In this document: positions 7,213 to 47,563 of the stretch, one piece after another
How positions within the stretch are numbered: position 1 is the stretch's first letter
How the letters are laid out: each line of letters opens with the position of its first letter
Assembly: GCF_013019105.1 (NCBI RefSeq)
Contig: NZ_BLTE01000023.1
Location: 1-47,563, forward strand
Reading direction: 5' to 3'
DNA length: 47,563 bases
From: Fundidesulfovibrio magnetotacticus
GTDB lineage: Bacteria > Desulfobacterota > Desulfovibrionia > Desulfovibrionales > Desulfovibrionaceae
The notes under the pieces: generated by a model
What the model was told of the DNA's origin: nothing
Databases searched by the model: none
The model's input: only the letters and a program-made list of their open reading frames with translations
Position numbers and translations under genes: made by a program

Positions 7213-8007
7213 CAAAGACGCGGCGGCAACACGGTCGCGCAACAGGCCCCCGGCGGCAAGGGCTTCGCCCGGATCAGACGGGGCTTCGCCCCGGACCCCG
7301 GCAGGGCTCCGCCCTGCACCCGTATATGGCCCCGCCCTCGCGACGTCGGATGGTACGGACAGGTAAGAAGCCTCCGGCGGGCAAAGAGGGCTCCGCCCTC
7401 TCTGCACTCACCCGCCGGGGGGAGAGCCTCCCCCCGGACCCCGGCAATTGCTTCGCGTCGGCGGGAGGGGCGGCAGGGCCGGGTGGCGGGGCGGTCGGAG
7501 AATATGCCTCCGGGCAAAGGGCTACGCCCTCCGCACTCCCACTCCGCTTCGCGGGCTTCACCAGCGACGACAGTCTGGCCAGCAAGACCTTTGCGGCTGC
7601 GCCGCCTTTCGCGCGGGAATTCGCGCAAAGCCGCGAATCCCCGCGCGGGGGGCCGTGGCGCTGCGCGCCAGATTTTCGAGCAAGATCCGTTTCTTGGAAT
7701 TTTGAGGATAATTCCTTGTTCATCGTCGCTTGCGACGATGGCAATCCGCCGGGATAAGCGCTGCTTTGAGCGTGTTCCCGGCGGTTGTCTGCTGCTGCCC
7801 GGGCGTTCGGGGTCTGTCCGCCCCCTCTCACACAGGCCTACCCGGTGAAACCCGCGAAGCAACTGCCGGGTCCAGGTGGGGCTCCCCCTGGCGGGTGAGG
7901 TCTGGAGAGGGCAGCGCCCTCTCCAGCGGGTCCAGGGCAGAGCCCTGGCCGCCGGAGGCTTCTTCCTCCGACTGCCCTCCCGCCACCGAGACGACTGTCT
8001 TACCGGA
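7213..8007. repeat. 795-bp non-coding tract of GC-rich palindromic modules
   Basis: No gene is credible here. The tract is a patchwork of short palindromes of the GGGCTTCGCCC / GGGCTCCGCCC type (for example 7285-7295 and 7305-7317) and several copies of GCCTCCGGCGG next to AAAGGGC(T/A)ACGCCCT-like hairpins. A lone terminal module lies at about 7351-7410, and the left copy of the large structured repeat at 7491-7863. Confidence 0.8.
7491..7863 (+). repeat. Left copy of a ~375-bp structured inverted repeat
   Basis: These 373 bp match the reverse complement of 47188-47563 at roughly nine bases in ten. Three strong hairpins are shared: CGCGCGGGAATTCGCG with its partner (about 7610-7650), CATCGTCG-CTTG-CGACGATG (7722-7741), and CCGCCGGGA with TCCCGGCGG (about 7748-7787). 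Most differences between copies fall outside these stems. GCCTCCG at 7506 and an inverted GCCGCCGGAGGC near 7949-7960 act as terminal inverted repeats of a longer, about 480-bp unit that ends near 7974. Confidence 0.85.
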
Positions 8008-8457
8008 TCAAAATTCCCCGTCCAGGAGCAGGTGCGAATAATAACCCAGCACGGCGGCGAGGTAGAAGGGCAGCAGGACTTTCAAGGCGACGCCCATGAG
8101 CATCATGGGCGCGATGAGGATGGGGCTGGGGATGACGAGCCCGGCCCACCAGGTGTGGGTCCATCCCCGATGGGAACCGATGGCGGGGAGGATGGCGCAG
8201 AAGCCCAGGAGCGCGGCATAGCGGTACTGTTCGCGCAGGATGAGCACTGCGTCGGCGGCCAGGGCCACGCCGTAGTAGAGGTGTCGGCCTTTGGAGCTGG
8301 TGTCCACGTCGGGGAAGAGCGCGCCCAGCACGGCCAGGGCGGCCATGAGGGCCATGGTCTTGGGATCGGGTTTGTAGAGGCCGAGCCACCACGCTCCGCC
8401 CAGGGCGGTTGCTGTAGCGGCCAGGGCTCCCGCGATGTGTCCTTTGTAGCCGGGCAT
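8008..8457 (-). CDS. YdjM-like membrane-bound metal-dependent hydrolase
   Basis: This 149-residue membrane protein has about four hydrophobic helices. Conserved polar residues of the YdjM (DUF457-like) family are present: His7 in KGHIAG, the DVD in LFPDVDTSSKGR, HRGWTHT in the middle, and HLLLD at the C-terminus. These are the presumed metal ligands; the substrate is unknown, though E. coli YdjM is SOS-regulated. No convincing ribosome-binding site precedes the ATG. It lies between the hairpin-rich tract and the Suf genes and seems to be a single gene. Confidence 0.82.
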   Translation of the reverse strand: MPGYKGHIAGALAATATALGGAWWLGLYKPDPKTMALMAALAVLGALFPDVDTSSKGRHLYYGVALAADAVLILREQYRYAALLGFCAILPAIGSHRGWTHTWWAGLVIPSPILIAPMMLMGVALKVLLPFYLAAVLGYYSHLLLDGEF

Positions 8458-8571
8458 GTGGGGCGGGGCTAGCAGTTCGCGGCGGGAAGTTCAAGCCTGG
8501 TGGCCGTTTGAGAAAAGGCCGGGCCGGAGCATCGTCCCGGCCCGGCCTTGCGATCGAGGGCGGTCAACGGT

Positions 8572-9729
8572 TTAGAACATGTCCTTTTCGCATTCGGAGA
8601 TGGTCTCGTCGATGACCTTCTTGAGCTTGTCGGGCAGGCCCATGATGTCCACGTTGAGGAATCCGCGCACGATGGTGGAAGTGGCTTCCTCCTCGTCGAG
8701 GCCGCGCGCCATGAGGTATTCGATCTCTTCCTGGGCGATCTTGCCCACGGCGGCCTCGTGGGAGAGTTCCACGCCGTCCACGGTGGCTTCCAGTTCGGGG
8801 ATGGCGTGGATGACGCCGCCGCCGAGGATCAGGCCCTTGCACTCCAGGTGTCCGCGCGCGGGCACGGCGTTGCCGGCGATGTGGCCTCGGGCGATGATGG
8901 TGCCGCCGGTGGTGATGGTGCGCGCGATCATTTCGCCTCGCGTGTCGGGCGCGGCCAGGATGATACGGCTGCCGGTGTCCAGGTGGGAGCCCGTCGGGGC
9001 CACCATCACGGAGTTGAAGCGGGCCACCGCGCCCTCTCCCGCCAGGGTGACGGTGGGGTACATCTGGAGGTCGCGCACGGGCTTCAACAGCACGTAGTTG
9101 TTGAGGAACACACCGCCCTCCTCCACCTTACCGGCGGAGCGCGGGCGCACAACGGTGTTCTCGGCCCAGTTGTGGATCATGGTGAAGGTGAGCTTGGCGT
9201 TCTTCTTCACGAAGAATTCGGAGATGCCCAGGTGCGCCGCGCCCTTGGAGGAATGGGCCACGGAGCATCCGGTGATGATGTGCAACTCCGAGTCTTCCTC
9301 GACAACGATGATGTTGTGCACGGCCTGACCGGTCATGTCGCCCTTGATGAACAGGCAGGACTGCACGGGCTCCGTGATCTTCGCGCCCTTCTCGGTGCGG
9401 ATGAAGTATCCGCCGTGGAGGTCGCTGGCGGCCTTGCGGGTGAAGTCGTCCTTGTCCTTGTCGACAAGGGTCCACATGTATTCCTTGAGGCCGTCGTACT
9501 TGGCCATTGCGGACTTGATGTCCAGGATCTCCACGCCGGGGCGCTTGCTCTTGCAGTGCACCGCTCCGTGGTCCATGTGCATGTAGGTGCCGCTGACGGC
9601 GCTGGCGGCCACGTCCACGCCCGCCATGAGCAGCTGGTGCTTATCGGCCTCGTCGAGGGTGTTGAGGTCGGCGATCTGGCCCGGGGCGGGGGCGGCGAAG
9701 TCGAACTGCGAAAGGTCGATGGGCTTCAT
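8572..9729 (-). CDS. SufB/SufD-family Fe-S cluster scaffold (minimal two-gene type)
   Basis: This 385-residue protein has the right-handed beta-helix core of the SufBD family; typical segments are SCLFIKGDMTGQAVHNIIVVEE, AENTVVRPRSAGKVEEGG and the C-terminal LSHEAAVGKIAQEEIEYLMARGL. It would form the cytoplasmic scaffold on which Fe-S clusters are built with the SufC ATPase. It follows sufC by 13 bp. No sufS, sufU, sufE, sufA or second SufBD gene is nearby, and the order C then B with a short SufB matches the minimal SufBC-like systems of archaea and anaerobic bacteria. Confidence 0.87.
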   Translation of the reverse strand: MKPIDLSQFDFAAPAPGQIADLNTLDEADKHQLLMAGVDVAASAVSGTYMHMDHGAVHCKSKRPGVEILDIKSAMAKYDGLKEYMWTLVDKDKDDFTRKAASDLHGGYFIRTEKGAKITEPVQSCLFIKGDMTGQAVHNIIVVEEDSELHIITGCSVAHSSKGAAHLGISEFFVKKNAKLTFTMIHNWAENTVVRPRSAGKVEEGGVFLNNYVLLKPVRDLQMYPTVTLAGEGAVARFNSVMVAPTGSHLDTGSRIILAAPDTRGEMIARTITTGGTIIARGHIAGNAVPARGHLECKGLILGGGVIHAIPELEATVDGVELSHEAAVGKIAQEEIEYLMARGLDEEEATSTIVRGFLNVDIMGLPDKLKKVIDETISECEKDMF

Positions 9730-9742
9730 GGGAAACTCCGTA

Positions 9743-10501
9743 TCAGGCCAGGCAGCGCAGGCATTCCTGGTAGCCGAAGCGGCTGACGTGGTCGAGGATG
9801 TCGCGGGGGTTGGATTCGCAGCAGAGCTTGCCTTCGTACATCACCTGACCGCGGTCGGCGTTGATGTATTCGAGGATGTAGCCCGTGTGCGTGATGATCA
9901 GGCCGGCCACGTGGCGTCCGCATTTGGCCATGCGCAGGCTGCGTTCGGTGCCCATGGCGCATTCGCCGCCCAACAGTTCGCGCACGGTGTTGCCGATGAG
10001 CTTCATGTTTTCCAGGTCCACGCCGGACTCGGGCTCGTCGAAGAGCACCATGTGGGGCTGCTGGGCCATGAGCTGGAGCAGCTCCGAGCGCTTGATTTCG
10101 CCGCCGGAGAAGCCCGCGTTGACGTCGCGGTCCAGGAAGGTGTCCATGTTCACGCGGTGCGCCAGGGCGTCCACGGCCACGGGCCTGCCCTGGGCGGTCA
10201 TGGAGACCAGGTGGCGCAGCTTGAGGCCGTGGATGGTGGGCGGGCGCTGGAAGGACATGCCGATGCCCAGCTTGGCGCGCTCGTGGATGGGGGCGTGGGT
10301 GATGTCGTGCCCCCGGAACATGATGCGCCCTTCGGTGATGGTATAATTGCCGAAGCCCATGAGGGTCATGAGCAGGGTCGTCTTGCCGGAACCGTTGGGT
10401 CCGAAGAGGATGAAGGTCTCGTTTTCCTTGATTTCCAGGTCGATGCCCTTGAGCACCTCCCGGTCGCCGATCTTCACGTGCAGGTTTTCGATACTGAGCA
10501 T
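9743..10501 (-). CDS. sufC: SufC-type ABC ATPase for Fe-S cluster assembly
   Basis: This 252-residue cytoplasmic ABC ATPase has Walker A GPNGSGKTTLL near residue 37, signature FSGGEIKRSELLQ near 140, and Walker B MVLFDEPESGVD near 163. SGVD after the Walker B Glu and the overall length are typical of SufC. It powers cluster assembly on the SufB-type scaffold encoded 13 bp downstream. The start is the ATG of MLSIENLHVKI, with GAGG five bases upstream; a longer frame begins at 10546 but has no family counterpart. A 20-bp dyad lies 27 bp upstream. Confidence 0.92.
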   Translation of the reverse strand: MLSIENLHVKIGDREVLKGIDLEIKENETFILFGPNGSGKTTLLMTLMGFGNYTITEGRIMFRGHDITHAPIHERAKLGIGMSFQRPPTIHGLKLRHLVSMTAQGRPVAVDALAHRVNMDTFLDRDVNAGFSGGEIKRSELLQLMAQQPHMVLFDEPESGVDLENMKLIGNTVRELLGGECAMGTERSLRMAKCGRHVAGLIITHTGYILEYINADRGQVMYEGKLCCESNPRDILDHVSRFGYQECLRCLA

Positions 10502-10527
10502 GGAAGCCTCGTTGTTGGGGGGGACGC

Positions 10528-10547
10528 CTTGGCCAGCGCGGGCCAAG
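10528..10547. promoter_or_regulatory. Perfect dyad upstream of sufC
   Basis: CTTGGCC (10528-10534) and GGCCAAG (10541-10547) form a perfect 7-bp inverted repeat with a 6-base spacer in the 94-bp gap between rhomboid and sufC. It could be an operator for the Fe-S genes or the terminator stem of the rhomboid transcript; no T run follows. Confidence 0.4.
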
Positions 10548-10595
10548 CGGGATGGATACGCGCGGACGCCCGCGATGTCCAGAACGGCGGCCGGG

Positions 10596-11387
10596 TCACT
10601 CCCGCCGGTAGGCGCGGCTCTCGGGCAGGTAGCAGTAGCGGCAGTCCCGCTTGGACAGAACGCTCACGAGGAACATGCCGAAGGCGAAGCCCCCTGCGTG
10701 GGCCCACCAGGCCACGGATTGGCCGTCCACTCCTGCTCCGGTCTCCGAGAGGCCGGACCAGACCTGGATAATGAACCAGAGCCCCAGAAAGAGCGTGGCC
10801 GGCACTTCGACGATCCACGGGATGAAGATGATGGGAATGAGCACGATGACGCGCGCGTGGGGGAAGAGCCGGAAATAGCCCCCCATCACCCCGGCGATGG
10901 CCCCGGACGCACCCACCACGGGCATGCGCGAGTCCGCGTTGAAGGCCACGTGCAGGGCCAGGGCGGCCAGACCAGAAAGCAGGTAGAACAGGGCGAAGCG
11001 CCGGTGGCCCAGGGCGTCCTCAACGTTGTCCGCGAAGACCCAGAACACCCACATGTTCAGGAGAAAGTGCATCCAGCCGCCGTGCAGGAACATGTAGGTG
11101 ACGGCCGTGGACCATGCCCCGCGGGGATAGCCCATGGCCAGGGCCAGTTCCGGGCTGGTGAAGCGCAGCGGCACGGCCCCGTGCAGGTTGAAGAGCAGGG
11201 CCTGGCCGCGCTCCGTGAGGAAGAGCTCCCCCACGAACACCGCCGCGTTCAGGAAAAAAATCGTCCAGACCACGAGAGGCACGCGGATGCGCGGGATGTT
11301 GTCCTTGAGGGGGATCACGCGCCACGCCCCGGGGCGCGGCGCGAAACCCGCGCGAGAGGATCGGGAGCCGTCATCATCTAGGAACAA
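10596..11387 (-). CDS. Rhomboid-family intramembrane serine protease
   Basis: This 263-residue polytopic membrane protein has the rhomboid catalytic dyad: Ser in GASGAIAG (helix 4, near residue 162) and His in AHAGGFAFG (helix 6, near residue 233). The TM2 HGGWMHFLLNMWVFW motif is also present. It would cleave transmembrane segments within the bilayer; no substrate is evident. About seven helices, with a short Cys-containing tail (CRYC). Its first codons overlap the last 10 bases of the upstream RluA-CoaE gene, so translation is probably coupled. A shorter start near V24 (GTG) cannot be excluded. Confidence 0.9.
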   Translation of the reverse strand: MFLDDDGSRSSRAGFAPRPGAWRVIPLKDNIPRIRVPLVVWTIFFLNAAVFVGELFLTERGQALLFNLHGAVPLRFTSPELALAMGYPRGAWSTAVTYMFLHGGWMHFLLNMWVFWVFADNVEDALGHRRFALFYLLSGLAALALHVAFNADSRMPVVGASGAIAGVMGGYFRLFPHARVIVLIPIIFIPWIVEVPATLFLGLWFIIQVWSGLSETGAGVDGQSVAWWAHAGGFAFGMFLVSVLSKRDCRYCYLPESRAYRRE

Positions 11388-13069
11388 TACCCCTTCACGC
11401 GCATCCAGGCAAGCAGGGAGGCGACGCCGGCCCGGCGCAGGCCCGCAAGATCACGGAGCAGACGGGCGGCGGCCCGGTCCACGGCGGCAAGGTCCGAGGC
11501 GTTCTCCACCACGAAGGCGCAGGCAGCGAGCTTCTTCTCCCGGGGCCACTGCCAGGAGTCCACCTGTGCGGACAGGGCGTCGTCCCAGCCGCGCTTCTTG
11601 CGCAGGCGTTGATGGCGCAGGTCATCCGGGCAGTCCACGCCGACCACGAGGTCCACGGCCCCAGCGCCGGTCCATCCCGCCTCCAGGAGCATGGGGACCT
11701 CGGCGAAGGCCACGCGGACGCGCGTCTGCTCGCGCCAGAAGTCCTCCAGGCCGCCGCGCACCACGGGATAGAGCAGCTCCATCACTTCGCGGCGCAGGCT
11801 CTCGGAGGCGCGCATGGCGGCCAGGAGCGCGGCCTTGTCCACCCCGCCACGGGCCTCGGGCACGAAGCGTTCCCCGAAGCGGGAGCGCAGGAGGTTCGCG
11901 CCGTCGCGGCCCGGCTCGTAGAGCGCGGCCACGTAGCGGTCGGCGCTCCACGCGGGCAGGCCTCGGGCCTCGAAGGCTGAAAGCAGCGCGCTCTTGCCCG
12001 AGCCCGGGAGCCCCACCACGCCCACGCGCTGGCAGCCGCGGCCAAGATGGAGCAGCACGCGCCAGAAATCCCCGGGCGGCGGACAGACGAAATCGAGGCG
12101 TTCCGGAACGCCCTCCTCCGACTCGCTGGAACCAAAGGCCGGATGCGGCAGCCCCAGCTTCCAGGCGTGGAGCATCTGGCGCGAGGCCAGCTTGTGCAGC
12201 AGCGGGTCGGAGCGCTTCAGCTCGGCCTGCTCGCGCGAGGCGTACACGACGTCGCCCAGCAGGGGATGCCCCGCATGGGCCAGGTGCACGCGGATCTGGT
12301 GCGTACGCCCGGTGTCGATCTCCACTTCCAGCAGGCTCGCCCGGCCCGAGGGGGCGCTCCAGGCCACGCGCCAGCGGCTGTGGGCCTCGCGGCCGCCGCG
12401 CTGCACGCACATGCGCGTCTTGTGGGAGGGGTCGCGGCCGATGGGGGCGTCGGAAGAGCCCACGTCCCGGGCGGGCCTGCCGTGCACCAGGGCAAGATAG
12501 GTCTTGGAGACCTCGCGCCCGGCGAAAGCCTCGGAGAGGCGCAGACGCGCGGCCTCGTGGAGCGCCACGGCCAGGAGCCCCGAGGTGTCCTTGTCGATGC
12601 GGTGGACGATGCCCGGGCGCTGCCCTTCGATGCGCGCCAGTTCGGGAAAGTGGTGCAGCAGCCGGTTGACCAGCGTGCCTTCGGGACAGCTGGGGGCGGG
12701 GTGCACGGTGAGGCCCGGGGGCTTGTCCAGCACCAGGAGGTGGGCGTCGCGGTAGAGCACGTGCAGCCCGCCCTGCTCGGGCGCGGGCGTGTCCCGCGCT
12801 TCGGGGATGTCCAAGGTCAGGGCCTCGCCGCCGCCCAGCTTGTGGGAGGGACGCGTGACGCTCTGACCGTCCACGCGGGCCAGCCCCGCCTTGATCCACT
12901 CCTGGATCCTGGAGCGGGCCACGGGGCGGTGGGCCAGGAGCGCGGTCCAGACCTGATCGAGCCTGCCGGGCTCCGGGGCCGCGGCAGATTCGCGGGAGGC
13001 GACGGAAAGCTCGGCCGGATCGGCCGTTTCGAGAACCGGGACGCGTTTCTTGGTGCGGGAAGAGGCCAT
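11378..13069 (-). CDS. Fusion: RluA-family pseudouridine synthase + dephospho-CoA kinase
   Basis: A 563-residue two-enzyme fusion. Residues about 20-80 are an S4-like RNA-binding region. Residues 90-310 are an RluA/RluD-type pseudouridine synthase with the catalytic Asp in HRIDKDTSGLLAVA and the later GRTHQIRVHLAHAGHPLLGD. After a linker, about residues 355-545 are a CoaE-type kinase: P-loop GLPGSGKSALL, then SADRYVAALYEPG and VPMLLEAGW. CoaE phosphorylates dephospho-CoA in the last step of CoA synthesis. The P-loop is shorter than the usual GLTGGIGSGKS. The ATG at 13069 (MASSRTKKRVP) is preferred over a frame opening at 13150 that resembles no family. Both activities are inferred. Confidence 0.88.
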   Translation of the reverse strand: MASSRTKKRVPVLETADPAELSVASRESAAAPEPGRLDQVWTALLAHRPVARSRIQEWIKAGLARVDGQSVTRPSHKLGGGEALTLDIPEARDTPAPEQGGLHVLYRDAHLLVLDKPPGLTVHPAPSCPEGTLVNRLLHHFPELARIEGQRPGIVHRIDKDTSGLLAVALHEAARLRLSEAFAGREVSKTYLALVHGRPARDVGSSDAPIGRDPSHKTRMCVQRGGREAHSRWRVAWSAPSGRASLLEVEIDTGRTHQIRVHLAHAGHPLLGDVVYASREQAELKRSDPLLHKLASRQMLHAWKLGLPHPAFGSSESEEGVPERLDFVCPPPGDFWRVLLHLGRGCQRVGVVGLPGSGKSALLSAFEARGLPAWSADRYVAALYEPGRDGANLLRSRFGERFVPEARGGVDKAALLAAMRASESLRREVMELLYPVVRGGLEDFWREQTRVRVAFAEVPMLLEAGWTGAGAVDLVVGVDCPDDLRHQRLRKKRGWDDALSAQVDSWQWPREKKLAACAFVVENASDLAAVDRAAARLLRDLAGLRRAGVASLLAWMRVKGYCS

Positions 13070-13240
13070 GCGTTGTGGGATGCCCGGAAAGCCGCGCGGG
13101 GTCAACGATTGGAAACACTCAGCCACCGGCGCGGCTGAGGCGCACGGCATGGCGGGATGCCTGGCCCGCGACGGAGACGTCCGTAGCGGCCCGCACCCGG
13201 CGGCGCAAGCCGACAGACTGCGAGGCGAAAGGCGCGGGAC

Positions 13241-13277
13241 AAAAGGAAAGAGCCCGCACGGCCACGCCGGCGGGCTC
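13241..13277 (-). terminator. Rho-independent terminator of rpsT
   Basis: On the minus strand, GAGCCCGC (13277-13270) pairs with GCGGGCTC (13257-13250), followed by TTTCCTTTTG. It lies 24 bp after the rpsT stop codon. Confidence 0.8.
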
Positions 13278-13300
13278 GGGAATGCTTCGTCTGCCGGTGG

Positions 13301-13567
13301 CTAGACCGCGAGCTTGTTCACGGCCAGATTCAGCCGGGAAACCTTGCGGGCGGCGGTCTTCCAGTGGATGATCTGTTTGGAGGCGGCGCCGTCGAGCACG
13401 GCGGTGGCGGCCCGCAGAGCGTCCTGGGCGGCGGCGGTGTCCTTGGACTCCACGGCCTCGCGCACGGCCTTGATGGCGTTCTTCACACGGGTCTTCATGG
13501 CGCGGTTGCGGGCACGGGCGATCAGGCTCTGACGGTGCCTCTTCAGCGCGGACTTATGATTGGCCAA
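13301..13567 (-). CDS. rpsT: 30S ribosomal protein S20
   Basis: This 88-residue basic helical protein binds 16S rRNA in the small subunit. The start [26 protein letters not shown] and the end [11 protein letters not shown] are diagnostic for bS20, and length is normal. It is flanked by a good terminator and a 107-bp gap to glyS, so it probably has its own promoter. GGAGG lies about eight bases before the ATG. Confidence 0.97.
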
Positions 13568-13674
13568 GGGATTTCCCTCCTCGCTTCAATTTCAAAGACG
13601 GATTTAATAGGCCGGAGTGCGACGGGTGTCAAGCATTTCCCGTCGAATTTCCCGGCCGCCGCATACATTTTCCG

Positions 13675-15759: not shown

Positions 15760-15771
15760 GTCTTGCGTCCT

Positions 15772-16641: not shown

Positions 16642-16665
16642 GAAGGCTCCTCTGGGGTTAAGGCG

Positions 16666-23928: not shown

Positions 23929-24405
23929 CTAGACGCCTATGAGGTTTTCGCGTTCCTCGTGGGAGAGGAGCTTGTCCAGGTCGAGCAGGATGAGCAGCCG
24001 GTCCTCCAGCTTGCCCACGCCGCTGATGTATTCGCTTTCCAGGCCGGAGACCACGGGCGGCGGCGGCTCCACCGTGCTGGAGGGAATGCGCAGCACCTCG
24101 GAGACCGAGTCCACCACGAAGCCAACGATCATGTTGTTGATTTCGATCACGATGATGCGCGTGTGCTTGTCGTGCCCCCGCGAGGAGAGTCCGAAGCGCC
24201 TGCGCAGATCGATGATGGGAATCACCTTGCCGCGCAGGTTGATCACCCCTTCCACGAACTCGGGAGCGCGCGGGACCTTGGTGATCTCCATCATGCGGAT
24301 GATTTCCTGGACCTTGAGGATGTCCACGCCGAATTCTTCTTCGCCGATGGAAAACGTCACCAGCTGCATGAGTTCGGCGTCCTGCTTTTTCTGAGCCTCG
24401 TCCAT
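23929..24405 (-). CDS. cheW: CheW-like chemotaxis coupling protein (copy 1)
   Basis: This 158-residue single CheW domain couples chemoreceptors to the CheA kinase. Family segments are LVTFSIGEEEFGVDILKVQEI, the highly conserved RAPEFVEGVINLRGKVIPIIDLR, and VVDSVSEVLRI. It is closely similar to the cheW at 28065, so the two are paralogues. No cheA, cheY or receptor gene is adjacent. A longer frame opens at 24495, but GGAGG seven bases before the ATG at 24405 fixes the start. Confidence 0.93.
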   Translation of the reverse strand: MDEAQKKQDAELMQLVTFSIGEEEFGVDILKVQEIIRMMEITKVPRAPEFVEGVINLRGKVIPIIDLRRRFGLSSRGHDKHTRIIVIEINNMIVGFVVDSVSEVLRIPSSTVEPPPPVVSGLESEYISGVGKLEDRLLILLDLDKLLSHEERENLIGV

Positions 24406-24602
24406 CCTGGTTCCTCCGGGTATGGGCACTGGCGGCACCGCAAAACGCGGATGCCCGCAAGCTCTTCGTGTAGCTCCAAAAACGCCCCCTGGCAACCCCG
24501 GACCAGGACAGCCGCGCGCGGGGCAATGACGAAGCTTGCAAAAAAACGCCGCTCGTTTAAGGATGAAGCGCCGGAAACGTCCGGCGGAGGCATTTTCCGA
24601 CC

Positions 24603-27763: not shown

Positions 27764-27840
<77 letters not shown>

Positions 27841-28064: not shown

Positions 28065-28541
28065 ATGGACATCGACAGCCAGAAGAAAGACGGTTCCCTG
28101 CTCCAGTTGGTCACCTTCACCATCTCCAACGAGGAGTTCGGCATCGACATCCTCAAGGTGCAGGAGATCATCCGCACCATGGAGATCACCAAGGTGCCCC
28201 GCGCCCCGGATTTCGTGGAAGGGGTGATCAACCTGCGCGGCAAGGTGATACCCATCATCGACCTGCGCAAGCGCTTTTCCATGGAGTCTCGCAAGCACGA
28301 CAAACAGACCCGTATCGTCGTGGTGGACTTAAACGCCATGATCGTGGGCTTCGTGGTGGACGGAGTCTCCGAGGTGCTGCGCATCCAGTCCAACACGGTG
28401 GAGCCGCCCCCGGCCGTGGTCTCGGGCGTGGACTCCGAGTACATTTCCGGCGTGGGCAAGCTCGACGACCGCCTGCTCATCCTCATCGACCTGGACAAGC
28501 TCCTCACCTTCGAAGAGCAGCAGAGCCTCGCCGGGGGCTGA
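28065..28541 (+). CDS. cheW: CheW-like chemotaxis coupling protein (copy 2)
   Basis: This 158-residue single CheW domain has the same key segments as copy 1 (LVTFTISNEEFGIDILKVQEI, RAPDFVEGVINLRGKVIPIID, VVDGVSEVLRI). The two proteins agree over most of their length and differ mainly at the termini and in a mid loop (SMESRKHDKQ against GLSSRGHDKH). It lies alone between two identical tRNA-Asp genes read in the other direction. The partner CheA and receptors are elsewhere; different array membership for the two copies is inferred. Confidence 0.93.
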   Translation: MDIDSQKKDGSLLQLVTFTISNEEFGIDILKVQEIIRTMEITKVPRAPDFVEGVINLRGKVIPIIDLRKRFSMESRKHDKQTRIVVVDLNAMIVGFVVDGVSEVLRIQSNTVEPPPAVVSGVDSEYISGVGKLDDRLLILIDLDKLLTFEEQQSLAGG

Positions 28542-28625: not shown

Positions 28626-28702
<77 letters not shown>

Positions 28703-34118: not shown

Positions 34119-34120
34119 AC

Positions 34121-40161: not shown

Positions 40162-40170
40162 TGATATAAT
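40162..40170 (+). promoter_or_regulatory. Extended -10 sigma-70 promoter candidate
   Basis: TGATATAAT fits the extended -10 form TGn-TATAAT exactly; the -35 region is weak. Transcription from about 40177 would give a ~390-nt leader for the lactate operon. Confidence 0.45.
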
Positions 40171-40479: not shown

Positions 40480-40495
40480 TGGCACGATTGTTGTT
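40480..40495 (+). promoter_or_regulatory. Sigma-54 promoter of the lactate operon
   Basis: TGGCACG (40480-40486), four bases, TTGTT (40491-40495) matches the consensus TGGCACG-N4-TTGCW except T for C in the -12 element. Predicted start near 40506, 63 nt before the dehydrogenase ATG. The adjacent sigma-54 regulator gene supports it. Confidence 0.75.
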
Positions 40496-40512
40496 AAGGA
40501 CGGCTGACCGAA

Positions 40513-40532
40513 CCCTCCTTGACCGGGGAGGG
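40513..40532 (+). other. Leader hairpin masking a Shine-Dalgarno-like sequence
   Basis: CCCTCC (40513-40518) pairs with GGAGGG (40527-40532) inside the predicted 5' untranslated region. A short out-of-frame ORF starts at 40535, just after it. Confidence 0.4.
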
Positions 40533-40568
40533 TGATGCAACCTCAAAACGACCGGGAGAATCACCAGC

Positions 40569-41951
40569 ATGGTCAGCCAGTCCCTCAAACAAGCTTTTGT
40601 CGGCATAGTCGGCGCTGAAAACGTCATGGACGCCGAGGCGGACAAGCACTCCTACTCCTACGATGCCGCCGTGCTCGATCCGGTGCTCCCCGCCCTGGTG
40701 GTGCGCCCCTCCGAAATGGACCAGGTGGGCAGGATCGTGAAACTGTGCAACGACAACGGCCTGCCTCTCACCGTGCGCGGCGCGGGCTCCAACCTCTCCG
40801 GCGGCACCATCCCCTCCAAGGGCGGCATCGTGCTCCTGAGCAACGCCCTGAACAAGATCCTCGAAGTCAACGAGGAAGACATGTACGCCGTGGTCCAGAC
40901 CGGCGCCATCACCGCCAAGTTCGCCGCCGCCGTGGCCGCCAAGGGCCTGTTCTACCCCCCCGACCCGGGCTCCCAGGCCGTCTCCACCCTGGGCGGCAAC
41001 GTGGCCGAGAACGCCGGAGGCCTGCGCGGCCTGAAATACGGCGTCACCAAAGACTACGTGATGGGCGTCAACTTCTTCGACGTGGAAGGCAACTACTGCA
41101 AGTCCGGCTCCAAGACCGTGAAGTGCGTCACCGGCCTGAACATCCCGCAGCTCATGGTGGGCTCCGAGGGCACCCTGGCCGTGATGAGCGAGTTCATCCT
41201 GAAGCTCGTTCCCCCGCCGCAGGCCGCCAAGTCCATGATGGCCATCTTCCCCGACATCATGACCGCCTCGCGCACCGTTTCGGCCATCATCGCCGCCAAG
41301 GTGGTTCCCTGCACGCTGGAGTTCATGGACAACTTCACCATCGGCGCTGTTGAAGGCTTCGCCAAGGTGGGCCTGCCCACGGACGCCGGGTCGCTCCTGC
41401 TCATCGAAGTGGACGGACACCCCGCCCAGGTGGCCGAGGAGGCCGAAAAGGTCGAGGCCATCTGCAAGGCCAACGGCTGCACCCGCATCCAGGTGGCCAA
41501 GGACGCCGTGGAGCGCAACAAGGTGTGGGAAGCCCGCCGCGCGGCCCTCTCCTCGCTCGCCCGCCTGCGCCCCACCACGGTGCTGGAAGACGCCACCGTG
41601 CCCCGCTCCAAGATCCCGGCCATGATGCAGGCCCTGGACAAGATCGCCAAGGAATACAAGCTGACCATCGGCACCTTCGGCCACGCGGGCGACGGCAACC
41701 TGCACCCCACCATCCTCTGCGACCGCCGCGACAAGGAAGAGTTCCACCGCGTGGAAAAGGGCGTGGACGCCATCTTCGAGGCCGCCCTGGGCCTGGACGG
41801 CACCCTCTCCGGAGAGCACGGCATCGGCCTGGCCAAGTCGCGCTGGATGGAAAAGGAAACCAACCGCGCCAGCGTGCTCTTCTCCAAGCGCATCAAGGCC
41901 GCCGTGGACCCCAAGAACGTCCTCAATCCGGGCAAGATTCTGGGGGAGTAG
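40569..41951 (+). CDS. FAD-binding D-lactate dehydrogenase / glycolate oxidase GlcD-type subunit
   Basis: 460 residues: a PCMH-type FAD domain (LVVRPSEMDQVGRIVKLCND, LTVRGAGSNLSGG, then DPGSQAVSTLGGNVAENAGG) and an FAD-oxidase C-terminal domain ending in FGHAGDGNLHPT and LSGEHGIGLAKS. The family oxidises D-2-hydroxy acids; next to an Fe-S partner and a lactate permease, D-lactate to pyruvate is the likely reaction, with electrons going to the partner and the menaquinone or cytochrome pool. GGGAG is nine bases before the ATG. It is the first gene of the operon and ends 4 bp before the Fe-S gene. Glycolate as substrate cannot be excluded. Confidence 0.9.
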   Translation: MVSQSLKQAFVGIVGAENVMDAEADKHSYSYDAAVLDPVLPALVVRPSEMDQVGRIVKLCNDNGLPLTVRGAGSNLSGGTIPSKGGIVLLSNALNKILEVNEEDMYAVVQTGAITAKFAAAVAAKGLFYPPDPGSQAVSTLGGNVAENAGGLRGLKYGVTKDYVMGVNFFDVEGNYCKSGSKTVKCVTGLNIPQLMVGSEGTLAVMSEFILKLVPPPQAAKSMMAIFPDIMTASRTVSAIIAAKVVPCTLEFMDNFTIGAVEGFAKVGLPTDAGSLLLIEVDGHPAQVAEEAEKVEAICKANGCTRIQVAKDAVERNKVWEARRAALSSLARLRPTTVLEDATVPRSKIPAMMQALDKIAKEYKLTIGTFGHAGDGNLHPTILCDRRDKEEFHRVEKGVDAIFEAALGLDGTLSGEHGIGLAKSRWMEKETNRASVLFSKRIKAAVDPKNVLNPGKILGE

Positions 41952-41955
41952 CGAC

Positions 41956-43245
41956 ATGGCCGACCTCAACCACATGCTCAAACTGTTGAACGAGCTCGAC
42001 GACCAGATCGTCGGGTGCATGCGCTGCGGCATGTGCCAAAGCGTGTGCCCGGTGTTCGCCGAAACCGGCCGCGAGGCCGACGTGGCGCGCGGCAAGATCG
42101 CCCTGCTGGAGTTCCTGAGCCACGAGATGATCAAGGACGCCGAGGCCGTGAAAGAGCGCCTGGACAAGTGCCTGCTCTGCGGCTCCTGCGCGGCGGCCTG
42201 CCCCTCCGGCGTGAAGGCCCTGGACATCTTCATCAAGGCCCGGGCCATTATCACGGCCTACCTGGGGCTCTCCCCCGTCAAGAAGGCCATCTTCCGGGGT
42301 ATGATCACCAAGCCCGCCCTGTTCAACAATCTCCTGGCCCTGGGCTCCAAGTTCCAGGGCTTCTTCACGACCCCGGTGAACGACATCATCGGATCGTCAT
42401 GTTCCAAGCTTCTGTCGCCGCTTCTGGGAGACCGTCACCTGCTCTCCCTGGCGGACAAGCCCCTGCGCGGCAACGGCACGATCGACACCGCGCCCGGACT
42501 GAGCGGCTTGAGGGTGGCCTTCTTCTACGGCTGCGTGGTGGACAAGATGTTCACCAGCGTGGGCGAGGCCGTGCTCAAGGTGCTCAGGCACCACGGCGTG
42601 GGCATCTACATGCCCGTCGATCAGGTCTGTTGCGGCGTGCCCTCCCTGGCCTCAGGCGACCTCAAGAGCTACGAGGACCTGGTCCGCATGAACCTCAAGG
42701 TGTTCGGCAAGGGTGATTTCGACTACATCCTCACCCCCTGCGGCACCTGCACTTCGGCCTTCCATCACATCTGGCCGTTGATGAACTCGGGGTTCTCGCA
42801 GTCCGAACGGGAGACCATCGCCATGCTCGCCGACAAAGCCATGGACATCAACGCCTTCATCGCGGACAAGCTGGGCGTTTCCAAGGCGGAACCGGCGGCG
42901 GGGGCCAAAACGGTCACGATCCACGATCCCTGCCATCTCAAGAAGAGCCTTGGTGTGAGCGGGCAGGTGAGGACCGTGCTCGGCGCCAACCCCAACCTGA
43001 AACAGGTGGAAATGGCCGGTTCGGACGTCTGCTGCGGCTGCGGCGGTTCGTTCAACCTGCAGCATTACTCCGTCTCCACCAAGATCGGGAAGAAGAAGCG
43101 CGACAGCATTGTGGCTACCGGGGCCGACGTGGTGGCCGCGGGATGCCCGGCCTGCATGATGCAGATCGCAGACATGATGTCCCAGGCCGGAGACCGCATC
43201 GCGGTCAAGCACCCCGTGGAACTCTACGCTCAGACCCTGGGCTAG
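41956..43245 (+). CDS. Fe-S (CCG-domain) electron-transfer subunit of lactate/glycolate dehydrogenase
   Basis: 429 residues. Two [4Fe-4S] ferredoxin motifs (CMRCGMCQSVCP near residue 22 and CLLCGSCAAACP near 72) are followed by two Cys-rich CCG domains (QVCCGVPSLASGD and SDVCCGCGGSFN), the GlcF/LldE/HdrD pattern. It should take electrons from the flavoprotein encoded just upstream and deliver them to a membrane acceptor. No transmembrane helix is evident. The genes are 4 bp apart, so stoichiometric co-expression is expected. Confidence 0.91.
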   Translation: MADLNHMLKLLNELDDQIVGCMRCGMCQSVCPVFAETGREADVARGKIALLEFLSHEMIKDAEAVKERLDKCLLCGSCAAACPSGVKALDIFIKARAIITAYLGLSPVKKAIFRGMITKPALFNNLLALGSKFQGFFTTPVNDIIGSSCSKLLSPLLGDRHLLSLADKPLRGNGTIDTAPGLSGLRVAFFYGCVVDKMFTSVGEAVLKVLRHHGVGIYMPVDQVCCGVPSLASGDLKSYEDLVRMNLKVFGKGDFDYILTPCGTCTSAFHHIWPLMNSGFSQSERETIAMLADKAMDINAFIADKLGVSKAEPAAGAKTVTIHDPCHLKKSLGVSGQVRTVLGANPNLKQVEMAGSDVCCGCGGSFNLQHYSVSTKIGKKKRDSIVATGADVVAAGCPACMMQIADMMSQAGDRIAVKHPVELYAQTLG

Positions 43246-43275
43246 AATTCAACCAACCCATTGAAGGAGGAACTG

Positions 43276-44910
43276 ATGAGCGCATGGTTGCAGGTCTACA
43301 AACCGCTGGGTGACAGCTATGTCATGTCAGCGCTGGTCGCGGGCATCCCCATCTACATTCTGTTCTACATGCTCGCGGTCAAGCGCGCCAAGGGCCACGT
43401 GGCCGGCGCCGTCGCCAGCTTGGCCGCCCTCGTGCTGGGCATCGTGTTCTGGGGCATCCCCGCCTCCACCGCCATCGGTTCCTACACCTACGGCTTTGTT
43501 TACGGCCTCTTCCCCATCGTGTGGATCGTCGTCACCGCGGTGTGGGTCTACAACATGACCGTTGAATCCGGCGAGTTCGAGATCATCAAGAACTCCCTGG
43601 CGACCATCACCGACGACCGCCGCCTCCAGGCCGTGTTCGTCGGCTTCGCCTTCGGCTCCTTCATCGAGGGCACCGCCGGCTTCGGCACCCCCGTGGCCAT
43701 CACCGCGGCCATGCTCGCCGGCCTGGGCTTCAACCCCCTCTATGCCGCGGGCATCTGTCTGCTGGCCAACACCGCCCCCGTGGCCTTCGGCGCGGTGGGC
43801 ATCCCCATCACGGCCGTGGCCGGCGCCACCAAGCTCGACGAACTGGTCCTTTCCCAGATCGTCGGCCGCCAGCTGCCGTTCCTGTCCGTGATCGTGCCCA
43901 TCTGGCTCTCCGTGACCATGTGCGGTTTCAAGCGCACCATGGAAGTCCTGCCCGCCCTGCTCGTGGCCGGCGTGGCCTTCGCGGGCACCCAGTTCCTGAT
44001 GTCCAACTTCCACGGCCCCACCCTGCCCGACATCCTGTCGGCCATCGTGACCATCATCGCCCTGTGGGCCTTCCTGCGCGTCTGGAAGCCCAAGACCACC
44101 TTCCACTTCGCCGATGAAGCGCCTTCCACCGGCAAGGCCACCAGCAACTACTCCGCTGGCGAAATCCTGCGCGCCTGGATGCCCTACCTGATCCTGGCCG
44201 TGCTGGTGCTCATTCAGGGCTGGCCTTCCATCAAGAAAATCCTGGCCGCCGCCATCAACATCCAGATCGAATGGCCTCTGTACCACAACATGGTGGCCAA
44301 GATGGTCAACAACGTGGCCACCCCCCAGGCCGTGAAGTACGCCTTCCAGCCCCTGGCCGCCGCCGGCACCGCCATCCTGCTCTCGGGCCTGCTCTCCGTG
44401 TTCATCATGCCCGGCTACACCATGGGCAAGGCCATCGCCTGCTTCGGCAAGACCTGCAACCAGCTCCGCTGGCCCATCATCTCCATCGGCAACATCGTCG
44501 GCCTGGCCTTCATCATGAACGCCAACGGCATGTCCACCTCCCTCGGTATGGCTCTGGCCGGCACGGGCGTCATGTTCCCGTTCTTCGCCCCCATCCTCGG
44601 CTGGCTGGGCGTGTTCCTGACCGGTTCGGACACCTCGTCCAACCTGCTCTTCGGCAACCTCCAGAAGACCACCGCTCTGGAAATCGGCGTGCGTCCCGAA
44701 CTGTGCGTGGCCGCCAACACCTCCGGCGGCGTCACCGGCAAGATGATCTCGCCCCAGTCCATCTCCGTGGCCGTAGCCGCCACCGGCCTCCACGGCAAGG
44801 ACGGCGACATCTTCCGCTTCACCCTGTGGCACTCCGTGGCCATGGTGCTCTTCGTCTCCTGCCTGACCATGCTCATGGCTTATCCGCTCAAGTGGATGCT
44901 GCCCGGCTAG
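43276..44910 (+). CDS. lctP: L-lactate permease (LctP family)
   Basis: A 544-residue membrane transporter with about 12-14 helices. Family segments: [52 protein letters not shown] and [10 protein letters not shown]. It takes up lactate, and probably glycolate, with protons. The ATG at 43276 is right after AAGGAGG-AACTG; the frame opens at a TTG 15 bases earlier. It is the last gene of the operon, and a strong terminator follows. In D. vulgaris, as I recall, a lactate permease gene lies next to such dehydrogenase genes but in another order. Confidence 0.94.
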
Positions 44911-44931
44911 GCGCACATCCCGCATCATCCT

Positions 44932-44959
44932 GGGGGGCCGTCCGGCCCCCCTTTTTTTT
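44932..44959 (+). terminator. Terminator of the lactate operon
   Basis: GGGGGGCCG (44932-44940) and CGGCCCCCC (44943-44951) form a perfect stem followed by eight T residues, 22 bp after the permease stop. Confidence 0.93.
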
Positions 44960-44982
44960 CTTGCCCAAGGAGTGCCGTTTCG

Positions 44983-45007
44983 GGTTATTGTAACCAGAAT
45001 TGAATTC
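44983..45007. promoter_or_regulatory. Two adjacent small palindromes before the chemoreceptor gene
   Basis: GGTTA-TTG-TAACC (44983-44995) and GAATT-G-AATTC (44997-45007) are both perfect and lie 25-49 bp before the start codon. They may be operator sites; no factor is assigned. Confidence 0.35.
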
Positions 45008-45031
45008 TTTCCATTCCAGGAGGATCGATCC

Positions 45032-46930
45032 ATGACCTCAGCCAACCCCCGGGCCAATGGATTCCGCCTCTTCTTCCGCCGCCTTTCCATCTCCTGGCGC
45101 TTCGCCCTGCTCATCATTCTCTTCTCGGCCTTCGTGGGTGGCGTGGTCACAGCATTTTACCTGGGCATCAAGCAGGTGCTCGACCACAACGTTCTCGCGG
45201 CCCAGAATATCATGATCGAAGGTGAAAAGCAGAAGCTCGCCATCGCCTCGGACTCCATGGCCCTCTCCATCGGAGAGGCAATCAAATCGCAGGCCGACCC
45301 GGCAAAACGCATCGACCTCATCCGCCAGATGGTCGATCCCATCCGCTTCGAGGCAGACAAGTCCGGCTATTTCTTCGTCTACGAGAACACCACCAACGTG
45401 GCCCTACCCACCCGCAAGGAAACGCAGGGCAAGGACCTCGCCGATTCGAAAGACAAAAACGGCGTCTACTTCGTGCGTGACCTCATGCTCAAGGCCAAGG
45501 CGGGCGGGGGGTTCGTGGAATACGTCTTCCCCAAGCCCGGACAGGGCGACCAGCCCAAACTCGCCTACGCCACCATGATCCCCGGCACCACCATGTGGAT
45601 CGGCACAGGCGTCTACATCGACAACGTGGAACGCCAGAAACAAGTCATCCGCACGGAAAGCGAAGAACGCATCCGCTCGATCCTCACCAGGATCTTCACC
45701 GGCATCGCGATCACCCTGGTGATCATCATCGGCCTGTGCGGGCTGATCATCTCCACCATCACCGGCCCCATCCGCGAGGCCACCGCAGCCGCGGAACGCT
45801 GCGCCAAGGGCGACCTGGACATCAACCTCGACGCCCAGGGCAACGACGAAGCCGCGCACATGCAGGCCGCCCTCAACACCATGGTGGCCACCCTGCGTTC
45901 CAACATCCAGGCCATCGAATCGAAAACCAGGGAAGCCGAGGAGAAGGCCGCCGCCGCGGAGCAGGCCCGGCTCATCGCCGTGGAGGCCGTCGACAAGGCT
46001 GAAAAAGCACGCTGCGACGGCATGGGGCATGCCGCCGCCCTGCTCGAAACCGTCGCCAACCACATCGGCGCCGACACCGAGGAGGTCTCGCGGCAGGCCT
46101 ACGAAATCAAGGACCGCGCCGGACTCCAGAGCGACCGCATCCGTGAAACCGCCACCAACATGGAACAGATGACCGAGGCCGTCGTCGACGTGGCCAAGAA
46201 CGCCGCCTCCGCCTCCTCTGAAGCCGAACAGGCCAAGGCCAAAGCCCTCGAAGGACGCAGCGTGGTGGAGCAATCCATACAGGCCATGCGCCAGGTGGCC
46301 GGACAGGCCCAAGCCCTCAAGGCCAACATGGACGACCTGGGCAAACGCTCCCAGGATGTGGGGCGCATCCTCACCGTCATTTCCGACATCGCCGACCAGA
46401 CCAACCTCCTGGCGCTCAACGCCGCCATCGAGGCCGCACGCGCGGGCGAAGCCGGACGCGGTTTCGCCGTGGTCGCCGACGAGGTGCGCAAACTGGCCGA
46501 AAAAACCATGACCGCAACCAAGGAAGTCACCGAATCCATCACCGCCATCCAGGACTCCGCAAAGGACAGCATCGCCAACACCGACAAGGCCATCACCAGC
46601 ATCGAACAGGCTCGCCAGATGGCCGACACTTCCGGCGCCGTGCTCGGTGAACTTGTCCAGGGCGCACAAAGCTCCGCGGACAAGATCCAAAGCATCGCCA
46701 CGGCAGCCGAAGAACAATCCGCCGCGTCCGAGGAGATCAACCGATCCCTCGACTTCGTGCGCGAACTCACCACCCAGACCACCAACTCCGTGGAAAACGC
46801 CGCTCACGCCATCTCCGGCCTCGTCGACCAGGCAGGAGAACTCGGGCGCATCATCGACCAACTCAAAACCGAAGCCGGCTGCGCACTCGCCGCCGACTCA
46901 CCCAAGCCCGCCCTGCCCCGCCGATCCTGA
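45032..46930 (+). CDS. Methyl-accepting chemotaxis protein with a single-Cache sensor domain
   Basis: 632 residues. TM1 about 18-42; periplasmic domain about 45-205 with sCache_2 features ([36 protein letters not shown]); TM2 about 215-240 then HAMP; coiled coil; and the signalling hairpin tip [19 protein letters not shown]-type (about residues 450-467) with [16 protein letters not shown]. sCache_2 domains often bind small carboxylates, and the gene follows the lactate permease, so lactate or pyruvate taxis is a fair inference. AGGAGG lies nine bases before the ATG at 45032. The operon terminator upstream implies its own promoter. The tail lacks a CheR-docking pentapeptide. Confidence 0.93.
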
Positions 46931-46947
46931 CCCGCCCTCTTCGCGCC

Positions 46948-46983
46948 GTGAGCCATCCGAAGGCAGGCCTTCGGATGGCTCAC
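46948..46983. terminator. Perfect 17-bp palindrome after the chemoreceptor gene
   Basis: GTGAGCCATCCGAAGGC (46948-46964), AG, GCCTTCGGATGGCTCAC (46967-46983). It starts 17 bp after the stop codon and is probably a terminator, though no T run follows. The rest of 46984-47140 shows nothing recognisable. Confidence 0.6.
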
Positions 46984-47187
46984 GGCCATGACAACTCACC
47001 GCGATCGCTCAGTCACCCAACCGGCAGAATACTCCGACCTCCCCGCAGCGCTTCCGCGAGGGCGCAGCACTGCCCCAACCAGACCCGCCTTTGCTTCACG
47101 GTGACGCCCGGTGCGGTTACGGCGGTGGAGGGAGGGGAGGAGGAATAGCCTCCGGCGGCCAAAGGGCTACGCCCTTTGGAATCCCAT

Positions 47188-47563
47188 GTTGCTTCGCGGG
47201 TTTCACCGGGTAGGCCTGTGTGAGAGGGGGCGGCTGGTCTTCAGACGTCCGGACAACAGCAGACACCCGCCGGGAACGCGCTCAAAGCAGCGCTTATCCC
47301 GGCGGACTGCCATCGTCGCAAGCGACGATGAACAAGTAATTATCCTTTAAAATCCGAGAATTGATTCTTGCTCGAAACCCTGGCGCGCAGTACCACGGCC
47401 CCCCGCGCGGGGATTCGCGGCTTTGCGCGAATTCCCGCGCGAAAGGCGGCGCAGCCGCAAAGGTCTTGCTGGCAAGACTGTCGTCGCTGGTGAAGCCCGC
47501 GAAGCGGAGTGGGAGTGCAGAGGGCGTAGCCCTTTGCCCGCCGGAGGCATATTCTCCGACCGC
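47188..47563 (-). repeat. Right, inverted copy of the ~375-bp structured repeat
   Basis: This is the reverse complement of 7491-7863 at about nine in ten bases, running to the window edge. The complete unit here seems to span about 47141-47563: GCCTCCGGCGG at 47148-47158 and its inverted partner CCGCCGGAGGC ending at 47548 are terminal inverted repeats, each continued inward by CAAAGGGCTACGCCCT. The three internal hairpins of the left copy are all kept. There is no open frame with coding features. Confidence 0.85.

What the first reader, a model, noticed from the sequence alone, without database searches (positions are those of the whole stretch)
7491..47563. Hairpin-rich ~375-bp repeats in inverted orientation about 39 kb apart, with MITE-like ends
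The segment 7491-7863 reappears inverted at 47188-47563. By eye about 28 substitutions and one 3-base gap separate them. These cluster in two unpaired stretches, while three long hairpins are kept. One stem tolerates GCGC/GCGT, a G-U-compatible change. The ends carry inverted GCCTCCGGCGG(G/C)CAAAGGGCTACGCCCT modules, the layout of a non-autonomous mobile element or a family of structured RNAs. A homologous pair in this orientation could also allow inversion of the ~39 kb between them, which includes mfd, glyQS and the lactate operon.
Basis: partly seen in the sequence, partly recalled or inferred. Interest (0 to 1): 0.75.

Follow-up and report, generated by a model that had tools for sequence, protein, structure and literature searches.

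The report
Nested palindromic repeats between bacterial genes
The two look-alike stretches belong to a family of folded, palindromic DNA repeats, seen here only in one genus of sulphate-reducing bacteria, which sit behind genes and look much alike on both DNA strands; they resemble known bacterial repeat families but are larger and nested.

Summary
In detail: 7491-7863 recurs inverted at 47188-47563 with 29 substitutions and a 3-base gap. They are not a lone pair. The genome, a Fundidesulfovibrio, has 23 matches to a covariance model of the conserved core; six congeners have 2-7 each; none was found in 192 other genomes of the family. Anatomy is nested: outer GCCTCCGGCGG arms with branch hairpins, an inner GCTTCGCGGG stem, then a core of hairpins. 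Stems are rewritten with both-sided compensation (9 of 12 pairs), loops stay largely fixed, and G-T/A-C departures do not favour one strand. The core is a pseudo-dyad: two inverted halves, each a small hairpin plus a GCTTTG-loop hairpin. Callable copies lie between convergent or tandem genes, none between divergent ones. The core is absent at the site of window copy 1 in 6 of 6 relatives. The ahbC-hemB slot is filled in 7 of 7 genomes, in opposite orientations, with species-specific sequence. Best reading: a REP/BIME-like mosaic repeat acting on both strands at gene ends. No transposase identified; 39-kb inversion not supported.

The parts
7370..7457 (+). outer left module of copy 1: GCCTCCGGCGG arm, branch hairpins, and a first GCTTCGCG arm (7450-7457)
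   Evidence: sequence; the module (7365-7459 as query) matches in 7 of 7 genus genomes and in 5 further genera among 59 genomes
7506..7562 (+). inner left module of copy 1: GCCTCCGGGCAAAGGGCTACGCCCT hairpin and inner stem arm GCTTCGCGGGCTTCACC (7546-7562)
7610..7647 (+). hairpin 1 of the core, loop CAAAGC at 7626-7631 (GCTTTG on the other strand)
   Evidence: compensatory changes in 9 of 12 pairs over 16 distinct rows
7656..7670 (+). small hairpin TGGCGC-TGC-GCGCCA, the partner of hairpin A in the other half of the pseudo-dyad
   Evidence: aligned to hairpin A of the model on the opposite strand in own copies L003, L009, L010
7721..7740 (+). hairpin A of the core (perfect palindrome)
   Evidence: model R1 match 7720-7786, 95.6 bits; pairs counted
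7746..7784 (+). hairpin B of the core, loop GCTTTG at 7763-7768
7842..7860 (-). inner stem, right arm (GCTTCGCGGGTTTCACCGG on the - strand)
7864..7959 (+). outer right module of copy 1 ending in CCGCCGGAGGC
47504..47548 (-). left module of copy 2 (GCCTCCGGCGGGC...); the element is cut by the contig end at 47563
47404..47441 (-). hairpin 1 of copy 2
47265..47331 (-). hairpins A and B of copy 2
   Evidence: model R1 match, 100.7 bits
47191..47209 (+). inner stem, right arm of copy 2
47148..47187 (-). right outer module of copy 2 ending in GCCGCCGGAGGC

Best explanation
These are two copies of a genus-specific family of nested palindromic intergenic repeats, of the REP/BIME kind in how they behave but larger. 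A general hairpin module (GCCTCCGGCGG...) encloses an inner stem (GCTTCGCGGG.../...CCCGCGAAGC), and in the fullest copies that stem encloses a core made of two inverted halves, each a small hairpin and a large hairpin whose loop reads GCTTTG on its own strand, so that either strand of the core looks much the same. Shown: family, anatomy, compensated stems, no preference for one strand, location behind genes, absence of the core from the orthologous site in relatives, flipped orientation in one slot filled in all seven genomes. Inferred: the element works in either orientation at gene 3' ends, most likely as a two-way transcription end or barrier and 3'-end protector for transcripts from both sides; copies are homogenised within a species, and cores flipped, by recombination or conversion through the shared inverted arms; new copies arise by a mobilising activity not identified here.
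For: Copy number and range: 23 core matches in the own genome and 20 in six congeners, none in 192 other family genomes. Pairing: hairpin 1 has 40 both-sided compensatory cells in 9 of 12 pairs against a shuffled mean of 11.9, 0 of 500 shuffles as high, slid controls at most 13; hairpins A and B have 23 such cells in 8 of 21 pairs against 4.7, 0 of 500, slid controls at most 9. Strand symmetry: G-T against A-C departures 17:8 in hairpins A and B, 2:10 in hairpin 1, 19:18 in all; R1 also hits the hairpin-1 region on the strand opposite to its own core in 8 loci, with the model's hairpin-B loop on the loop of hairpin 1; the ahbC-hemB slot holds the element in 7 of 7 genomes, in one orientation in own, G001 and G003 and in the other in G002, G004, G005 and G006. 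Place: of 17 own copies (of 22) with both neighbours called, 10 convergent, 7 tandem, 0 divergent, against 4, 26 and 5 of 35 gene pairs in the window (Fisher p 6e-4 for convergent). Homogenisation: all 19 own rows of a 39-row tree form one group (100/100) although three of them sit in slots shared with relatives. Gain or loss: no core at the site of copy 1 in 6 of 6 relatives.
Against: Both window stretches have no canonical intrinsic terminator and no sigma-70-type promoter by a simple scan, and 0 of 18 own hairpin-1 stems are followed by a T-rich tail, though 9 of 13 in relatives are. Absence of divergent sites is not significant by itself (p 0.16). Gene neighbours rest on a simple codon-usage caller and some are weak or far (L003, L009, L014). 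Some covariation measures are not exceptional: further pair types in hairpin 1 are reached by 99 of 500 shuffles, and on the first 14 rows of hairpins A and B only one pair varies on both sides. Of the copies not truncated there, six gave no hairpin 1 and two only a poor one. No expression data. Perfect palindromes can also be kept by mutation alone, without function.
Confidence: 0.55

Rival explanations
1. A MITE: a non-autonomous transposon moved in trans by a transposase that recognises the GCCTCCGGCGG ends, with no role for the host.
For: Inverted ends, no gene inside, species-specific burst (19 of 22 own copies have no counterpart with matching flanks among the 20 relatives' copies), core absent from the copy 1 site in 6 of 6 relatives.
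Against: No cognate transposase or autonomous copy found: two pairs of arms about 2-2.5 kb apart (C1:340411-342906, C19:38162-40293) enclose genes that do not look like transposases by eye, but only one transposase family was searched. No target duplication could be fixed because modules are nested. Core stems are compensated, and one slot is kept in all seven genomes.
Confidence: 0.2
2. A structured non-coding RNA read from one strand: an sRNA, or a cis-acting RNA in 3' UTRs, with hairpin loops CAAAGC and GCUUUG kissing each other.
For: Strong compensatory pairing; the two loops are perfectly complementary in 22 of 30 copies; stable folding. If each large hairpin is read on the strand where its loop is GCTTTG, G-T departures exceed A-C by 18 to 7, as folding of single strands would give.
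Against: On any one strand of the whole core there is no such excess; flipped orientation in an orthologous slot; no promoter-like site; no Rfam match; no compensatory change between the two loops, and the complementarity also follows from the pseudo-dyad.
Confidence: 0.13
3. The palindromes are mutational by-products: template switching at replication forks keeps perfecting inverted repeats, so pairing is maintained without selection for a folded product.
For: In the ahbC-hemB slot of G002 and G006, whose flanks are 93-97% identical, 4 of 12 hairpin-1 pairs have changed on both sides with pairing kept, fast for paired point mutations; no preference for one strand.
Against: Loops CAAAGC and GCTTTG and hairpin A are conserved across species, which stem perfection does not explain; biased position at gene ends.
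Confidence: 0.12

Closest known systems
REP / BIME elements (GTAG and CGTC families)
   Same: Repeated intergenic palindromes, combined as mosaics, mostly between convergent or same-direction genes; PMC3733652 (passages only) describes this placement and says CGTC repeats have no dedicated transposase.
   Different: REPs are 20-40 bp palindromes by that paper's abstract; this unit is about 375 to 590 bp, nested, with a multi-hairpin core. The RAYT transposase domain Y1_Tnp is absent in 7 of 7 genomes of the genus. The word Desulfovibrio does not occur in the main text of PMC3733652 or PMC12306157.
MITEs
   Same: Short, no gene inside, inverted ends, present at some sites and absent at the orthologous ones.
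   Different: No parent transposon found; core conserved and structured; one slot shared by all seven species.
Rho-independent (bidirectional) terminators
   Same: Position behind genes; in relatives hairpin 1 is often followed by T-rich DNA (9 of 13; called terminator-like in L053).
   Different: Own copies lack the T-tail (0 of 18) and the unit is far larger than a terminator.
Multi-copy structured RNAs held in Rfam
   Same: Several compensated hairpins with largely fixed loops.
   Different: No family reached its gathering score in the element, and no single strand is preferred.

Membership tests
REP / RAYT system | single 20-40 nt palindrome | tested here: not met
   nested unit of about 375-590 bp with several hairpins
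REP / RAYT system | Y1 tyrosine transposase (PF01797) in the genome | tested here: not met
   0 of 7 genus genomes (one of them 66% complete), while 5 of 14 control genomes ring
REP / RAYT system | intergenic, between convergent or same-direction genes | tested here: met
   10 convergent, 7 tandem, 0 divergent of 17 callable own copies (of 22 examined); 4, 12, 0 of 16 callable copies (of 20) in relatives
REP / RAYT system | GTAG or CGTC tag at the foot of the palindrome | not tested
   not looked for systematically
MITE | terminal inverted repeats, short, no gene | tested here: met
   arms 47139-47207 / 47489-47557 and GCCTCCGGCGG/CCGCCGGAGGC ends
MITE | target site duplication | tested here: inconclusive
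   none seen by eye at the window site; outer boundary not definable because modules are nested; other copies not examined for it
MITE | presence/absence at orthologous sites | tested here: met
   core absent at the copy 1 site in 6 of 6 relatives; short empty gap between both orthologous genes in G002 and G005; G001 and G003 hold another palindrome; G004 lacks one neighbour gene, G006 has other genes there
MITE | parent transposon with the same ends | tested here: inconclusive
   two far-apart arm pairs examined, no transposase recognised by eye; no transposase family other than PF01797 was searched
Structured RNA | compensatory base pairs | tested here: met
Structured RNA | G-U tolerated over A-C on one strand of the whole core | tested here: not met
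   19 G-T against 18 A-C cells in all; 18:7 only if each large hairpin is read on its own GCTTTG strand
Structured RNA | transcription as a discrete RNA | not testable with these tools
   no expression data
Intrinsic terminator | GC hairpin followed by a T-tract | tested here: not met
   0 found in both window stretches; met in part in relatives

The most novel reading that the evidence does not exclude
A strand-symmetric hairpin element recognised by its loops: a host factor or a mobilising enzyme reads fixed loop sequences (CAAAGC/GCTTTG, and ATCGTCTTCAAATCG in a sister palindrome family) on whichever strand is exposed, while the stems are free to be rewritten as long as they pair. This would be a hairpin-recognition system without the REP transposase, with cores that are swapped and flipped inside conserved slots.
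Probability: 0.15. Interest if true: 0.75.

Novelty: new variant of a known kind. Interest (0 to 1): 0.45.

Why it matters
How palindromic repeats spread without a recognisable transposase, and whether they act at gene ends, is an open question for REP-like families. This family offers a natural experiment: one slot (ahbC-hemB) filled in seven species with the element in either orientation, stems rewritten with compensation over short divergence, and one species with many more copies than its relatives. It also breaks assemblies: nine contig ends of this genome lie in matches to it.

Tried and rejected
Rejected: a two-copy old duplication (23 core matches in the genome). REP/RAYT or IS200/IS605-type mobilisation by a Y1 transposase of the genome (none in 7 of 7 genomes). 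A known RNA family: in the window only three tRNAs reach a gathering score, and seven weak matches near the element are all far below theirs. Viral carriage: 0 exact matches of the core pattern in the viral collection. Inversion of the 39 kb as an event seen at copy 1 (flanks collinear in 6 of 6 relatives). A kissing loop as established fact: complementarity is perfect in 22 of 30 copies, but no compensatory change was found, and the pseudo-dyad explains it as well.

Literature: five papers hold the word Fundidesulfovibrio (listing only) and no title or abstract start shown there concerns repeats. Only PMC3733652 and PMC12306157 were opened, and only by passages; all others were seen as listings.
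Full report
What was checked. The two stretches named in the finding are real and inverted to each other: 376 aligned columns, 29 substitutions and one 3-base gap, with 11 substitutions at 7664-7716 and 12 at 7785-7822; hairpin 1, hairpin A and the GCTTCGCGGG arms carry none, and hairpin B carries only the G-U-compatible one at 7773. Two more, 7659 and 7660, fall in a small fourth hairpin (7656-7670). The stretch 7501-7980 folds with z-scores of -6.9 and -7.0 on the two strands. The window is a complete contig of a 4.46-Mb genome in 58 contigs, and its right end lies inside copy 2, so copy 2 is truncated. Nine contig ends of the genome lie in matches to this repeat, at the very end or within 5 bases of it (C1, C6, C31, C32, C33 starts; C2, C3, C15, C23 ends), so copy counts are minimum numbers.

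How many and where. BLASTN with copy 1 gives 65 pieces in the own genome. A covariance model (R1) of the best conserved part, hairpins A and B, gives 23 matches in the own genome (21 of at least 90 bits, two of 44-48), and 2, 7, 2, 2, 4 and 3 in G001 to G006, the other six genomes of the genus held, 20 in all. It gives none in the other 52 of 59 relatives and none in the other 192 of 199 genomes drawn from the family. Both searches used the stricter filters and scored at most the best 87 or 26 candidates per genome, so weak matches may be lost. G001 is taken as Fundidesulfovibrio agrisoli SG106, since a contig of that record with the core has the same length, 33,056 bases; the genus name of the window rests on this. 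The outer hairpin module is wider: 7 of 7 genomes of the genus, and 5 other genera of the family, among 59 genomes.

Anatomy. From outside in: arms GCCTCCGGCGG / CCGCCGGAGGC, in several own copies continued by GGAG(G)AATA / TATTCCTCC; short branch hairpins such as AAAGGGCTACGCCCTTT; an inner stem GCTTCGCGGGCTTCACCGG / CCGGTGAAGCCCGCGAAGC; variable pairing inside it; then hairpin 1 (loop CAAAGC), a small hairpin in own copies, an AT-richer linker, hairpin A and hairpin B (loop GCTTTG). The inner stem arm occurs 60 times in the own genome, the reversed control pattern never. Simple copies are just the stem with a 14-15-base loop (C9:4072-4123 and C5:125650-125702); others hold a different long palindrome in place of the core (C16:53309-53462); others hold both, among them L007, L010, L012, L013 and L016. 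Around copy 1 two layers of module are nested (7370-7457 outside 7506-7562). The unit is a mosaic built from hairpins inside hairpins.

Pairing. Hairpin 1 was aligned without gaps over 16 distinct rows: 90.6% of cells pair, 9 of 12 pairs show changes on both sides (1 of 500 shuffles as high) in 40 cells (shuffled mean 11.9, 0 of 500); sliding the partner gives at most 13 cells; the number of pair types is not exceptional (99 of 500). These rows were found by their loop and set in the best-pairing register, which leans towards pairing. Besides two truncated ones, own L021 and L022 and the relatives' L050, L052, L059 and L061 gave no hairpin 1, and L054 and L057 only poor ones. For hairpins A and B over 34 distinct rows, 96.3% of cells pair, 8 of 21 pairs show both-sided changes in 23 cells, shuffles average 4.7 and none of 500 reaches it, slid versions give at most 9 (this alignment was fitted to the model, which leans towards it; on the first 14 rows only one pair varied on both sides). 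The outermost pair of hairpin A fails in 11 of 34 rows.

Strand. If one strand were the working RNA, G-U departures should exceed A-C on it. Counts are 17 G-T and 8 A-C for hairpins A and B (8 of the 17 in the outermost pair of A), 2 and 10 for hairpin 1, 19 and 18 together; 25 further cells are other mismatches. R1 also matches the hairpin-1 region on the strand opposite to its own core in 8 loci, at E 1e-4 to 8e-3; in these stretches the loop of hairpin 1 stands where the model has its hairpin-B loop, and the model's hairpin A falls on hairpin A itself in L051, L058, L072 and L074, on the small hairpin in L003, L009 and L010, and on another small hairpin in L060 (alignments printed for L051 and L060, the rest read from the sequences). 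So the core is a pseudo-dyad of two inverted halves. Read on the strand where its loop is GCTTTG, hairpin B has 8 G-T to 5 A-C and hairpin 1 has 10 to 2, 18 to 7 together: suggestive of single-strand folding of each half, though cells are not independent. Loops CAAAGC and GCTTTG are exact complements in 22 of 30 copies that have both (14 of 17 own); no compensating pair of loop changes was seen, and own copy L006 has changed both loops without restoring pairing.

Neighbours. With a simple codon-usage caller, 17 of 22 own copies have a called gene on both sides: 10 between convergent genes, 7 between tandem genes, none between divergent ones. In relatives, 16 of 20 are callable: 4 convergent, 12 tandem, none divergent. 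Gene pairs of the window by the same method are 4 convergent, 26 tandem, 5 divergent of 35; this baseline is small, includes the copy 1 site itself and misses some genes. Convergent sites are enriched in the own genome (p 6e-4); the lack of divergent sites alone is not significant (p 0.16). Some neighbours are weakly scored (L003, L014) or far (L009). PMC3733652 reports the same kind of placement for REP repeats (passages).

Evolution. Window copy 1 lies between a gene for a small protein without a family match and a convergent YdjM-family gene. Its flanks are found on one strand, 0.07 to 5.4 kb apart, in 6 of 6 relatives, and no core is there in any. In G002 and G005 both neighbour genes are present with only a short gap; in G001 and G003 both are present with a different palindrome between them; G004 lacks the small gene and has a short gap; G006 has other genes there. 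Comparing flanks of the 22 own copies with those of the 20 relatives' copies, three own copies have counterparts: between ahbC and hemB (families confirmed) in all seven genomes; next to a methionyl-tRNA synthetase gene in own and G002, with one flank matched in G006; next to a hemC-like gene in own and G002 (the last two gene names read by eye). At ahbC-hemB the element has one orientation in own, G001 and G003 and the opposite in G002, G004, G005 and G006; at the hemC-like slot own and G002 differ too. Yet in a tree of 39 copies all 19 own rows form one group with support 100/100, the three shared-slot copies included. So slots are shared while their contents are species-specific: either conversion between copies or repeated insertion at the same places. 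In the ahbC-hemB slot of G002 and G006, whose flanks are 93-97% identical, four of twelve hairpin-1 pairs have changed on both sides with pairing kept, and one more differs on one side and is unpaired in G006. That is fast, and fits replacement of whole arms by conversion or template switching as well as selection.

Mobility. The Y1 transposase domain of the REP and IS200/IS605 systems is absent from the seven genomes, with 5 of 14 control genomes positive. Two pairs of inner arms about 2-2.5 kb apart enclose genes that do not look like transposases by eye. Other transposase families were not searched. Rfam has no match in the element.

Function. By a simple scan the two window stretches have no promoter-like or T-tailed terminator-like site. 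In relatives 9 of 13 hairpin-1 stems are followed by at least 4 T in 10 bases, in the own genome 0 of 18. A two-way transcription end, or a barrier and 3'-end protector, is my best reading from place and strand symmetry; it is inference. Verdict: a large, nested variant of REP/BIME-like intergenic repeats, genus-specific in its core as far as searched, with strand-symmetric, compensated hairpins; ordinary in kind, unusual in build and in its slot behaviour.

Noticed in passing
G000 C1:342820-342834, C4:24953-24967 and others; loci L007, L010, L012, L032, L038, L133, L152: A second family of long hairpins with a nearly fixed apex ATCGTCTTCAAATCG (up to one mismatch) and very different arms that by eye still pair: 16 in the own genome, 55 in G002, 22 in G006, 4 in G005, 2 in G004, 0 in G001 and G003; the reversed control pattern gave 1 in all seven. 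Several sit inside the inner stem of the element studied here.
   Followed up: partly
L012 (G000:C4:23508-26789): The two flanks of this copy lie 613 kb apart (G005) or on different contigs in the other relatives, so this copy may sit at a synteny breakpoint, unlike window copy 1.
   Followed up: no
window 23929-24495 (-) and 28065-28541 (+): Two CheW-domain genes in opposite orientation, forming long inverted repeats (235 nt at 80%, 194 nt at 82%).
   Followed up: no
window 27764-27840 and 28626-28702: Two tRNA-Asp (gtc) genes 862 bases apart within a 104-nt direct repeat at 91% identity.
   Followed up: no
G001:C1:213600-215300 and G003:C1:90500-91900 (L106, L105): At the site orthologous to window copy 1 these two species carry a GCCTCCGGCGG module plus a long palindrome with apex GACATTCTTCAAATATGTC, similar to the ATCGTCTTCAAATCG apex family.
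   Followed up: partly
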